From Tubiluchus corallicola (lineage: Eukaryota; Priapulida; Priapulimorpha; Priapulimorphida; Tubiluchidae): DNA of 64,000 nucleotides. The notes beneath the pieces were generated by a model. The model ran no database searches and had not been told where the DNA came from. It worked only from the letters and a program-made list of their open reading frames with translations. Positions 37,501 to 43,500 of the stretch are shown here, piece after piece. A program made the translations under genes and the position numbers. The stretch's first letter is position 1. Each line of letters starts with the position of its first letter. Location: assembly GCA_030141605.1 (NCBI GenBank), contig JAQGDQ010000004.1, positions 2,079,001 through 2,143,000 of the forward strand, read 5' to 3'.

Positions 37501-40500
37501 AGAGAGACACAGAGAGACAGAGAGAGACAGAGAGAGAGACACAGAGAGACAGAGAGAGACACAGATAGAGACACAGAGAGACAGCGAGAGACAGAGAGAG
37601 ACACAGATAGAGACACAGAGAGACAGAGAGAGACACACAGAGAGAGAGAGACACACAGAGAGACAGAGAGACACACAGAGAGATAGAGAGAGACAGAGAG
37701 AGACACAGAGAGACAGAGAGAGACACAGAGTGACAGAGACAGAGAGAGACACAGAGACAGAGAGAGACACACAGAGAGATAGAGAGAGAAATAGAGAGAC
37801 AGAGAGACACACAGAGAGACAGAGACAGAGAGAGACACAGAGAGAGAGAGAGACACAGAGAGACAGAGAGAGACACAGAGAGACAAAGAGAGACACAGAG
37901 AGACACAGAGAGACTCAGAGAGACAGAGAGAGACACAGAGAGACAGAGAGAGACACAGAGACAGAGAGAGACAGAGAGAGACGGAAAGAGACAGAGAGAG
38001 ACAGAGAGAGACAGAGAGAGACACAGATAGAGACACAGAGAGACAGCGAGAGACAGAGAGAGACACAGATAGAGACACAGAGAGACAGAGAGAGACACAG
38101 AGAGACAGAGAGAGACACAGAGAAAGAGAGAGACACACAGAGAGACAGAGAAAGACACAGAGTGACAGAGACAGAGAGAGACACAGAGACAGAGAGACAC
38201 ACAGAGAGATAGAGAGAGACATAGAGAGACAGAGAGAGACACAGAGAGACAGAGAGAGACACAGAGTGACAGAGACAGAGACAGAGAGAGACACAGAGAC
38301 AGAGAGAGAGACACACACACAGAGATAGAGAGAGAAATAGAGAGACAGAGAGACAGAGACAGAGAGAGACACAGAGAGACAGAGACACAGAGAGAGACAG
38401 AGAGAGAGAGAGACACAGAGAGATAGAGAGAGACACAGAGAGACAGAGAGAGTCAGAAAGAGACACAGAGACAGAGAGAGACACAGAGTGAGACAGAGAG
38501 AGACACAGAGAGGTAGAGAGAGACACGGAGAGACAGAGAGAGACACAAAGAGCATTCGAGAGACACAGAGAGACAGAGAGAGAGACACAGAGAGACAGAG
38601 AGAGAGACACAGAGAGACAGAAACGGTAATTTATCGTTTCTTTTTGAAATTTTCATTTTTTTTATTCAGAATTATGAATAATTCGTACTAATTTTTTTCC
38701 GATTTAGGTCATATTCAAGATCGAATCTCGTCAATTTATGGACGAGCTGGCCAAAATTTTATTAATGATCTAAGTATGCCTGGTCAAGCTGTAAATAAAC
38801 ATATATTAATTATACTTCAAATACCCGCCCCAGTGGAGTTATGAGAATTTTAAAACAGGGTGTCATTCAGACTGTAGCAGACACGCATCTTTCATGAGCT
38901 CATGATACCTACTGAAAGAGAATCTCAATTCATCAAACTCAATGTGGCAATAGGGCAAGACCCCTACTATATATACCACCCAGCAACTAGTCCTAGATCA
39001 TTCATTTACTGCCTGTAATGATGTGACAAATATAGGTCATTTTTTACGTCAAAATGCCAAAAATCCGAAAATAATCAAAATGGCGGCCTATCTCCGAAAC
39101 GGCTCATTTTTGATATGTAATATTTTGGCTGTGGGGTACATCTGAGGGGATCATCCAACCCTGTGAATATGAACAAAATCGGTGATTTGTCACCTTCCAC
39201 TATTTTTTGACTTTTGCATGGTTTTCTCGCGGAATGACTCTTAATTGTTTCCACATATATACTACCTTGTACTGTTTTTACATTAACATTGTATGTTAAT
39301 AGGTTCCATGCCCCGAACACAAGAAAGGTTTTCTGGTGCGCATGTTTTACTGGTGGTACACAGGGTAACAAAAAATTTTCTAATTTTTGCTGATGGGCTT
39401 ATTTGTTTTGTTTGCAGATTTTTAAGTTATTACCTAGTTAACAGCTGCCATTGTGCAATACGTTGAGGTTATGAGTATGATTAAAATTTTAAGGAAAAAT
39501 CTATGCCTACTCCTGTACTAAACGTCATTCCCAGATTCATTTACAGAAAGAATTATGCTTTGTAAACAAAAAAAATGAAATATAATTAAGTAAAGTAATG
39601 TATTGAGCACTTGGACTTGTAAAACAATGAAATCTATTATTTGATAACAAATTATTAACTGTATCCTAAAAAGTGATTTTTCTGATATATTTGTTCATTA
39701 TTTTGTCTTCGTATTCTAAAACTGAATAAATTTCAGTATGGCTTTTCTTGGCTACAAACGACCGTTAGAATTTTGCGATCTGTGGTATTTGAATAGAGAA
39801 GACAGGTGCAATGATCTCGTACCAATATTTGAACGCTGTTGGGATAATGAACTGATGAAAATGAAAAGGTACAAATTTCATTCTCCAGCGATGTGTCTAA
39901 AATTCACATTAGAGGTGTTAGTTAAATTTTTCGTTTTTATAGCCATTGTGATTTTTTCACTATAGATTTAAGGTGTATTTTATTGATGAAGGATGTTTAT
40001 GCATCTGAACATGATTTATTCAGAAGAAATATAAACCCATTTGTACAAGTAAAGGTGATGATATGATGCTTCTTTATAGCTGATTGCATTTTTGCAGGTC
40101 AAGAGCTCGCATTCGAGTTGAGAAGGAACTGGGTTTGAAGCAGAGCGAATTATATGAGCCATCTTTAATGAAAGCATTTGCAAAGTCTTATTGGCCAATC
40201 TTTATTGAAGCGAGTATATACAAGGTTTTGAATGACATTCTGGTGATGGTTGGACCACAGTTATTAAAGTATTAAAATTTTGTTTTGAATTAATTACTGT
40301 CATTTTAAACCAGTACCTGGCATCAACAGTACTTAGTAATTTTAATATTTGCTACAGTTGTGATCTAGAAATCAAGGCAGCTAGCTAATTGTACATCGTT
40401 GATGCTTGTCTACTAAACTGTATTAATATTTAGCAGCAAAACTATTGGCATTGCCATAGTTACTGCCTACATTGTTTTTTAAATTACAGGCTGTTGATAA

Positions 40501-43500
40501 TGTTTATTGGTGATGATTTGGTTCCATATTGGCATGGCTGGTTATACGCGATCATCATGTTCCTGTCAGCCATGGTTCGCACTTTGTGCATTCAGAAATA
40601 TAACATGTGCATGGTCCTGGTAGGGATGAGAGTGCGCTCATCTGTTACTGCTGCTGTTTATAAGAAAGTATGCTATTATTGTAAACCAATCAATTTTTAT
40701 TTTCAGAATGTTGATCACATTTATCAGCGATTATTCGGTTCCATACTGGCATGGTTATTTTTATGCTGTTCTCATGTTCATAGCTGCCATGGTTCGCACA
40801 CTTTTTATGCACCAATATGTTATATGTGTTCTCTTATTTGGGATGAGGGTGCGGTCAGCTGTTACTGCAGTTGTTTACAAAAAAGTAGGTGGTGTTAAAT
40901 TGACCATTTTACCAAGATGCTTGCGGTGATTCAGTTTCACGTTTGCATGATTATTTTTGCTCTACTGCAATACTTATCTATAGCAGACATGTGTTGCCTC
41001 GAAGTTTTTACTGCATGCAGTGATGTTAACGCTGTTTCGAACATTAAAAATGGACTCGTTTGAGTTCTAAGTTCTTAGGAGTAAAATAAACCGTGTAACT
41101 CTTTATTTCCAAATTAGATAGTTGTATTATGCTCCCAAAAATACATCCAACTACTATCTTTAGTCACTTAAAATGAATATTGTTTATACTGCAGAATTGG
41201 AGCAAAGGACACTTATTGTATCGTGTATAAAAAAATTATAAATGACTACTGTTTAATTATTTAACTAACATTTTGAAATGCTACTTACAGTTTTTGTTCA
41301 TTTTAGCTATTATTTGTGTTTGGTTTTGTCTAAATTTGGCACTGTTTTGCTTAATTTTATCAGGAAATTTGGCTTATAAATGGCACCATCTTCTGGCAGC
41401 CCAGTCCAAAGATCTTGCATGTTAAGCACTGAAAAAACGCTAATTAACACTGTAACTTACTGCGATTCAAATAACAGAAATTAAAAAATAACTATTTTTC
41501 CCTTTTTTCTCTCACTTCTAGTTTAGCACCCAAACTTGGATTGGAACATTAGTTAGTTAAAGCTTACCTTTTCGGTGAACTTGTTCACATTCAAGTTCAA
41601 GTCAGTTTTCTAGCAATTGTTAAGTTCACAAAAAAGTGAATGAATTCCTGATACTCTCACAAATGAACGATTTCTTCCCGTCATTGATTCTAAATTCGCA
41701 TGTCGTTACTTTATATCAGCATTCTTGTTCTGCTTTGATGTTTACGACAGCTGCTTTTACTGAGTGCTTTAGCTTGTTTATTACATCTGTTGGTGGTCAA
41801 CTGGTCGTGTATCTAATAGCCATGCTTTATTGACTGTTCGGTCCATAGTCTCGCATTGTTTCGCATATGTTTGCAGTTATTCTTTGTGCCAACAATGCTC
41901 AAGAATTACTGAAGCTGTGTTACACATGGCTGTCTCCTGGCTGTCTGTATAATATTTTACATGTATTATGGTACAGTATCCATTGTGCACATACATTATT
42001 CGTACATGTTGCTGGTGCACCTGCTGGTATAACTGTTTTGATAGTCATAAGTGCTTACATATTGCTTGACTCCAATCAGTGTGATGCTGAACACTTTTTC
42101 ACTTATCTGTTTGTTCACATAATTATTTTGTTATATATTTGTTTATTCACAGATAGCTTTGCTGATTGTAATTAATTTTTGCTAATGGTTACTTGGCTTG
42201 TAGAAGTCAATTGTTTATTAGGTTCTCACTTTGTCTGTTCTTGTAGATTTTTTCTTTGTGAATTGAATCACGTGCTATGATATGGCTGCATGGCAGGAAT
42301 GCATATTTAAAGTAGAAAATGAGGTCTTGGCAGGTTTTGAAACAAAAGCACATTTTGTTTTTATTTCTCTTGCAAAACAACCTTCACGCTTATAAATCTT
42401 CACAGACTGGAAATTTGTGAATAATTCAAATTCAGTTTGTAAAGATTGTACAAGCAATAGTTGTGTGTTATAATTAGCTTACGAATTTTTGTTACCGTCA
42501 TTTAACAGCAGTTTGGTATAACAGAGTTGGATAACAAAAGATAAAATCTTTAGATCGTGTTTTGTAATTACATTTTGATGAATTCATTTACTGATTCAGT
42601 TTCATTTTAGATATTTGAGTAATCTGAAAAACCTTGCGTAGCATAAATTTAAACATGCATTGATCTTCTAGGCGCTTCACATGACTAATGCTGCCAGAGG
42701 ATCCTCTACTGTAGGCGAAATTGTTAATCTTATGATAGTTGATGCACAAAGGCTAAACGATTTTGCTCTATGGGTACATTGGCTATGGTAAAGTTTTTTG
42801 TTTTTGCCAGTAATTTGCTCGTGATATTTAATGTGCAAATCACATTTATGCTTTCATTTTCAAACACAAACCTTCATGACTATAATTCATGCAAATGTGG
42901 CAAACAAATTTTGTTACTGATTAATGGATTTAAATATCATTGCAGCTACTGATTAAAAGCAGTGATAATGATTACAATGATAAATAATGATTTGAGATTC
43001 ATTAGTTTGGATGTAGGATCCATGCTTTTACGTATCTGTAGTTAATCCTGTAGTGTAATGCTTAGTATGTACTATTAATCATATATTGTGTTTGTGATTG
43101 TTTCTGCCCACTAATACTTCTTCAAGTTGTTATTAGTAAACCGTAGGTAAAGGATAAATAGTACGATCAGGGCATCAACATGTTAATGATTGCCACCTCT
43201 ATCTTTGTTGTTATTCATCTTTAGTTTGTTGGTTCATGATGCTTCAAGTTAATTAATGGTGGTGCTTATACATAGTAGTAGCCGAGTTGACTGTTCTGTA
43301 AATACCTGGCATTGAATTTGCTGTAAAAAAGTCATTACTTGGGCCTTCCCCAGAGACATATGCACATCAAACTGGCAGTTGAGTTTAATTCTTTGTTGCT
43401 TTTGTTGTAATATCTGTAGATCTTTGATTCTTTTAAGCTTTAAACTTTGCTATGTATATGCTCTCTTTTTCATGATTATCACTTTGAACCAAGTTATTAA

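What the first reader, a model, noticed from the sequence alone, without database searches (positions are those of the whole stretch)
40490..40884. Tandem duplicated, mutually exclusive exons in the substrate-binding helices of an MRP1-like transporter
Seen: two 178-nt exons back to back, with the same entry and exit phase, both completing the same Lys codon from exon 8, about 63% identical in protein (38/60), each with its own acceptor and donor. Since 178 is not a multiple of 3, using both or neither destroys the frame. The 39-nt intron between them (40668-40706) is probably too short to splice, a known steric mechanism for exclusive choice. Known: in human MRP1 this TM6-TM7 segment holds Lys332 and Asp336, which affect glutathione and leukotriene C4 handling. 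The variants put Met or Thr at the first position and keep Asp at the second. Inference: the gene makes two transporters with different substrate preference. The Drosophila MRP gene is known to carry variable copies of internal exons, so this may be parallel evolution.
Basis: partly seen in the sequence, partly recalled or inferred. Interest (0 to 1): 0.9.

Follow-up and report, generated by a model that had tools for sequence, protein, structure and literature searches.

The report
Swappable exon in an animal drug-pump
An animal gene for an MRP1-type export pump carries two alternative versions of one exon, only one of which can fit in a working message, and the two versions differ at residues that touch the cargo in mammalian MRP1, so one gene may make two pumps with different cargo handling; this has not been tested in RNA or protein.

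Summary
Two 178-nt exons (40490-40667, 40707-40884), 71% identical in DNA and 37/59 in protein, lie 39 nt apart in an MRP1-like gene (E2 to stop, 32583-61113; first exon not found). Either alone gives an open 1512-aa frame; both or neither stops in the next exon. Divergence looks constrained (dN 0.23, dS 1.22). The 39-nt intron is under the ~50-nt steric limit and the gene's next smallest (102 nt), so mutually exclusive splicing is the best reading; no RNA was available. The pair holds Leu381 and Phe385, which touch glutathione in MRP1. Relatives nearly always keep them (125 and 127 of 131 segments); the copies have Ile/Asn and Met/Val. Five other contact positions, in constant exons, also differ from bovine/human MRP1. 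The nearest sampled relative is Priapulus (100/99). Arthropod duplicates map to other exons (E14, E23/24); 0 of 120 relatives showed an isolated second E9. New variant of a known kind.

The parts
32583..61113 (+). MRP1-like (long MRP type) gene, exons E2-E32; E1 with the start codon not found
   Evidence: splice model open over 1512 aa for both isoforms; best PDB hits MRP1; TMD0 PF24357 and ABC_membrane PF00664
40098..40268 (+). constant exon E8 before the pair; encodes the equivalents of Lys332 (K), His335 (N), Asp336 (D)
40490..40667 (+). alternative exon E9a, 178 nt, bovine MRP1 residues 347-406: end of TM6, outer loop, TM7
40590..40592 (+). E9a codon at position 381: Ile (Leu in 125 of 131 relative segments)
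40602..40604 (+). E9a codon at position 385: Asn (Phe in 127 of 131 relative segments)
40668..40706 (+). 39-nt intron between the copies; best branch-point guesses 22 and 26 nt from the donor
   Evidence: branch-point scoring was a home-made consensus
40707..40884 (+). alternative exon E9b, 178 nt, same residues and phase
40807..40809 (+). E9b codon at position 381: Met
40819..40821 (+). E9b codon at position 385: Val
42672..42787 (+). constant exon E10; holds the premature stop if both or neither copy is used

Best explanation
E9a and E9b are functional, mutually exclusive exons of one MRP1-type export pump. Splicing E8 to either copy and on to E10 keeps the frame (shown by sequence). Joining 9a to 9b is likely blocked because the donor and any branch point in a 39-nt intron are too close (inferred), and messages with both or neither stop in E10 (shown). 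The exon swaps the end of TM6, the outer loop and TM7, while the contact residues in the other exons stay the same in both isoforms. The swap changes the two residues of this exon known to touch the glutathione moiety, 381 and 385 (Ile/Asn in 9a, Met/Val in 9b), so the two pumps probably differ in handling of glutathione and its conjugates (inferred). 9b is probably closer to the ancestral state of this clade and 9a the more changed copy (suggestive only).
For: Exact exon pair, phases and frame logic. Constraint: 15/6/29 differences at codon positions 1/2/3, dN 0.225, dS 1.22 (NG86), 22 amino-acid changes against a neutral mean of 30.9 (0.04% of 5000 simulations as low; 83% of them had a stop). 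Splice sites of both copies score within the range of the gene's other sites. The 39-nt intron is the smallest of 31; the next is 102, median 401; steric threshold about 50 nt (PMC5740500, PMC7969005, passages). Position 385 is Phe in 127 of 131 and 381 Leu in 125 of 131 relative segments. Of 14 sites with at least 85% consensus among 65 non-redundant segments, the copies differ from each other only at 381 and 385. Those residues contact LTC4 or its glutathione part in MRP1 (PMC8267652, PMC10886794, PMC10651738, PMC10353158, passages). PMC8267652 states that even conservative F385 changes impaired human ABCC1 transport, marked there as partly unpublished. Differences are denser in positions 364-391 than in the rest of the exon (15 of 28 against 7 of 32, p 0.016; I set that range as TM7).
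Against: No RNA or protein data, and one genome only. dS is near saturation (1.22 to 1.94 by three methods; a fourth failed), so dN/dS is rough. The 85% cut was mine: site 389 (82% Phe) also differs between the copies and departs from consensus in both, and site 377 departs in both. The pocket is unusual beyond this exon: of the 14 LTC4-contact positions listed in PMC8267652, 7 are kept (332, 553, 594, 1197, 1245, 1246, 1249) and 7 are not (335 N, 381, 385, 440 W, 550 L, 1093 N, 1243 A), so 381/385 may share a general drift. Priapulus_A also has Met381/Val385, so loss of the usual residues is not tied to having two copies. PMC8267652 notes that not all proposed LTC4 contacts are supported biochemically and that most equivalent residues were not critical in rat Abcc6. 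Relatives were the best database hits, a biased sample.
Confidence: 0.72

Rival explanations
1. Mutually exclusive exons are real, but the choice mainly regulates amount (productive or unproductive message) or tissue expression, and both pumps have the same cargo.
For: Both wrong combinations tested (both, neither) stop in E10, so splicing could tune expression; the contact residues outside E9 are the same in both isoforms.
Against: The copies differ at the two contact residues of the exon, which 125 and 127 of 131 relative segments keep.
Confidence: 0.15
2. One copy is a recently dead or never used exon kept open by chance.
For: 9a is the more changed copy (E9 tree end branch 0.64 against 0.12; of the 22 differing sites Priapulus_A agrees with 9b at 10, with 9a at 3 and with neither at 9, counted by hand).
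Against: No stop or frame lesion in either copy, splice sites normal, and 22 replacements against 31 expected under neutrality. The simulation counts both branches together, so one relaxed branch is not fully excluded.
Confidence: 0.08
3. The 39-nt intron is spliced or retained and both copies enter some product.
For: The frame of 9a stays open through the intron and 9b (ORF 40434-40895).
Against: With both copies spliced in, the frame ends in E10; with the intron kept the open stretch ends at 40895, just after 9b. 39 nt is far under the gene's other introns.
Confidence: 0.04
4. The pair is an assembly artefact or a mis-joined haplotype.
For: Only one assembly was seen, and it could not be searched.
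Against: 71% identity with third-position bias and flanks that do not match in register is not what a mis-joined haplotype gives.
Confidence: 0.01

Closest known systems
Drosophila MRP (CG6214) with two variable internal exons, Grailles et al. 2003 (title in a reference list and one citing passage in PMC4234516; copy numbers recalled)
   Same: MRP1-type gene with tandem duplicated internal exons; splice variants also reported for A. gambiae and T. ni orthologues (same passage)
   Different: In the arthropod relatives read here the duplicates map to E14 and E23/24, not E9; that these are the Drosophila exons is my inference
Amphioxus (Branchiostoma) MRP1-like isoform records
   Same: Records that are otherwise 90-95% identical differ strongly in one internal segment of a transmembrane domain
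   Different: The segment is E23/24 in the second domain; some records are from a hybrid, so alleles or loci may contribute
OGDH exons 4a/4b in vertebrates (PMC7969005, passages)
   Same: Exclusive exon pair enforced by branch points 25-41 nt from the donor in the intron between them
   Different: Unrelated protein; there the branch points were mapped by experiment and lie beside a tract of about 65 nt of pyrimidines
PxABCC1 exons 7a/7b of diamondback moth (PMC4395465, passages)
   Same: Two alternative exons in an ABCC gene
   Different: Their position in the protein is not given in the passages read, so whether they match E9 is open

Membership tests
MRP1-type long MRP transporter (ABCC) | N-terminal TMD0 | tested here: met
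   PF24357 E 1.6e-10, 41.8 bits, cut-off 27
MRP1-type long MRP transporter (ABCC) | two transmembrane domains whose closest solved relatives are MRP1 | tested here: met
   PDB searches of each domain, MRP1 best; PF00664 in the first domain for both isoforms; TIGR00957 is the best NCBIfam hit, but only a 300-aa piece was scanned, so its full-length cut-off (1470 bits) cannot be judged
MRP1-type long MRP transporter (ABCC) | two nucleotide-binding domains with Walker A and signature motifs | tested here: met
   GQVGAGKSS and LSGGQ in E17/E19, GRTGAGKSS and LSVGQ in E29-E31, read in the translation; motif names recalled
MRP1-type long MRP transporter (ABCC) | exports glutathione or conjugates | not testable with these tools
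   no assay
Mutually exclusive exon pair | adjacent homologous exons, same length and phase, each alone keeps the frame, both or neither breaks it | tested here: met
Mutually exclusive exon pair | transcripts hold one and only one copy | not testable with these tools
   no RNA reads
Steric exclusion | donor to branch point under about 50 nt | tested here: met
   the whole intron is 39 nt; the branch point itself is only guessed
RNA-pairing (docking/selector) exclusion | unusual complementarity between the introns | tested here: not met
   three intron pairs; 84%, 85% and 46.5% of 200 single-base shuffles were as strong; only the first 600 nt of the 1787-nt intron were used
U12/U2 incompatibility | a U12-type donor beside U2-type sites | tested here: not met
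   no donor of the model (30, E6 not yet included) starts with the U12 pattern tested
Arthropod-type MRP1 duplicated exons | duplicates at E14 or E23/24 | tested here: not met
   no second E14 or E23; E24 has only three short weak hits, E 0.002 to 0.048

The most novel reading that the evidence does not exclude
Exclusive splicing in MRP1-type pumps has arisen at three separate places (E9 here, E14 in arthropods, E23/24 in arthropods and amphioxus), and each place carries residues that touch the substrate (381/385, 594, 1093), so exon duplication repeatedly re-tools the pocket; in this animal it yields a pocket with Asn at 385, seen in none of 131 relative segments.
Probability: 0.35. Interest if true: 0.7.

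Novelty: new variant of a known kind. Interest (0 to 1): 0.52.

Why it matters
If true, one gene supplies two pumps that differ in a single helix lining the cargo pocket, a natural swap experiment on MRP1 selectivity. With the arthropod and amphioxus sites it would make testable whether exon duplication repeatedly alters substrate contacts in this family.

Tried and rejected
Not supported: RNA pairing as the switch and U12/U2 incompatibility. Left open: whether the duplication is older than the split from Priapulus; on 60 columns 9a+9b is the best pair (82/58), but 9b+Priapulus_A and 9a+Priapulus_A are not rejected (p-AU 0.42 and 0.23). Weakened on checking: the idea that duplicated exons are special in carrying contacts.

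Led nowhere: viral contigs (16 pattern matches, none confirmed); a region search with 9b found 8 proteins among 22 candidates; the neighbouring monocarboxylate-transporter-like gene gave no useful taxon signal; Rfam and tRNA scans of the window were empty. Ten literature searches listed no title or abstract start on a duplicated TM7 exon in an MRP gene; lists were capped, two of the searches served other questions, and subscription papers are mostly not held. Passages of PMC7570057, PMC4587908, PMC8956072, PMC11215311, PMC3724490, PMC5405539 and PMC10300789, found by search terms only, said nothing on it. A Caenorhabditis mrp-1 alternative exon that I recalled was not confirmed.

The exon E6 was first missed and found later at 39303-39364; the tree, the splice scores and the exon search were made without it. 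One search was cut in the output; one search repeats it in short form.
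Full report
What was checked. The window holds a long MRP1-like gene on the + strand. I built its exon model by hand from open frames and splice signals and added E6 later. From E2 (32583) to the stop (61113) either isoform is open over 1512 aa. 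The first exon with the start codon was not found. The 31 introns of this model have GT-AG ends except the one after E29, which begins GC.

The pair. E9a (40490-40667) and E9b (40707-40884) are both 178 nt, start in the same phase after two bases of a Lys codon from E8, and end in phase 0 before E10. They share 127 of 178 nt and 37 of 59 full codons' residues. Each alone gives an open frame. Both give a first stop at codon 436 and neither at codon 316, in each case in E10, with many junctions still downstream, so decay of such messages is expected from general knowledge. The flanking introns do not match in register (16 of 36 and 10 of 36), which fits an old duplication. The other exons, E6 not queried, have no comparable second copy in the window: the nucleotide-binding-domain exons find each other, E2 has one short hit with a stop, and E24 three short weak ones.

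Is it under selection. Differences at codon positions 1, 2 and 3 are 15, 6 and 29; dN is 0.225 and dS 1.22 by NG86, with dS 1.51 and 1.94 by two other methods; a fourth method failed. With 50 random changes, 5000 neutral simulations gave a mean of 30.9 replacements; 0.04% had 22 or fewer, and 83% had a stop. The pair as a whole evolved under constraint; the test does not say this of each copy. The 9a and 9b donors score 6.3 and 4.8 and the acceptors 9.5 and 11.2, inside the range of the other sites.

How exclusion may work. The intron between the copies is 39 nt; the other 30 are 102 to 4912 nt. Published work puts the steric limit between donor and branch point at about 50 nt (PMC5740500 and PMC7969005, passages read). 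A 39-nt intron must be under it. A screen for pairing among the three neighbouring introns found nothing above shuffles, and no donor matched the U12 pattern tested. Steric exclusion plus loss of wrong messages is the simplest mechanism, but it is inferred.

Where the exon sits. The alignment to bovine MRP1 places it at residues 347-406; human MRP1 has the same offset there. They are in E8, present in both isoforms as Lys and Asp, and kept in 127 of 131 relative segments each. The contact residues in the swapped exon are Leu381 and Phe385 of TM7 (PMC8267652, passages and Table 1; PMC10886794; PMC10651738). Both make van der Waals contact with glutathione (PMC10353158, passage). 9a has Ile and Asn, 9b has Met and Val. 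In 131 segments from 128 relatives, 381 is Leu in 125 and 385 Phe in 127; Asn385 and Ile381 occur in none, and Met381 and Val385 only in Priapulus_A. After thinning to 65 segments, 14 of 60 sites have at least 85% consensus, and the copies differ from each other at two of them, 381 and 385. The cut was mine; site 389, at 82%, also differs, and site 377 departs from consensus in both copies.

The rest of the pocket. Contact positions outside E9 are identical in both isoforms. Of the 14 positions listed for LTC4, seven match MRP1 (332, 553, 594, 1197, 1245, 1246, 1249) and seven do not: 335 Asn, 440 Trp, 550 Leu, 1093 Asn, 1243 Ala, and 381 and 385. So this pump's pocket had changed in constant exons too, and its cargo may differ from mammalian MRP1 in both forms. 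PMC8267652 adds that not every proposed contact is supported biochemically and that most of the equivalent residues were not critical in rat Abcc6.

Whose gene. The protein is 61% identical to Priapulus caudatus P0005, and in a tree of 31 rows (30 relatives that I chose, and the 9a isoform without E6) the two are sisters with 100/99 support, with Priapulus P0006 next at 100/99. The source is probably a priapulid or another scalidophoran; nothing else confirmed it, since the window's own assembly could not be searched. P0005 is an isoform X2 record in a cluster of two sequences; I could not see the other.

Known cases. Among the 120 relatives, 14 gene models, all from arthropods, hold a second E14 with E8-E13 single or not detected, and four (P0001-P0004) repeat most of the domain, as fused or tandem gene models would. 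None has an isolated second E9 (0 of 120); the eight proteins were not put to that test, a very diverged copy could be missed, and isoforms merged in one database cluster are invisible, so this is not proof of absence. Self-comparison of eight chosen models shows repeats around the FDxTPxGR motif, read by eye as E23/24, in six (P0007, P0010, P0024, P0033, P0054, P0118), with several copies in Anopheles albimanus and Timema. Pairs of records that differ mainly in E23/24 occur in aphids, Gryllus and Branchiostoma. Residue 594 falls in E14 and 1093 in E24, so each place carries a contact; but 8 of 13 transmembrane-domain exons do, so this is not striking by itself. The Drosophila gene is reported to have two variable internal exons (title in a reference list and a citing passage; copy numbers recalled).

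Timing. With 60 columns, the tree pairs 9a with 9b weakly (82/58) and does not reject 9b with Priapulus_A or 9a with Priapulus_A. 9b is nearer to Priapulus_A (37 of 60 against 30 of 60) and to 87 of 131 segments.

Verdict. Observation confirmed; exclusive splicing likely; the residue argument is corrected, and the corrected one points to glutathione contacts. It is a new site for a kind of variation already known in this gene family.

Noticed in passing
window 36989-38621: A 1.6-kb array of a 10/20-bp AGAGACACAG repeat inside intron 5-6.
   Followed up: partly
window 35451-35884 and 38774-39206: Long inverted repeat arms (272 nt at 74%, 175 nt at 91%) on either side of that array, like the ends of a mobile element in intron 5-6.
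   Followed up: no
window 45040-45318, - strand: Open stretch resembling a reverse transcriptase (RVT_1, E 0.008, under the curated cut-off) in intron 10-11, perhaps a decayed retroelement.
   Followed up: partly
window 16097-19740, - strand: Exons of a monocarboxylate-transporter-like gene; its largest exon matches PF07690 (E 1.5e-16), closest listed hit a tick protein at 34% over half the query.
   Followed up: partly
window 58848: The intron after E29 begins with GC instead of GT.
   Followed up: no
P0033, P0024, P0054 and others: Several arthropod MRP1 gene models hold repeated E23/24 segments or two E14 copies in a row, as if automatic annotation fused mutually exclusive exons.
   Followed up: partly
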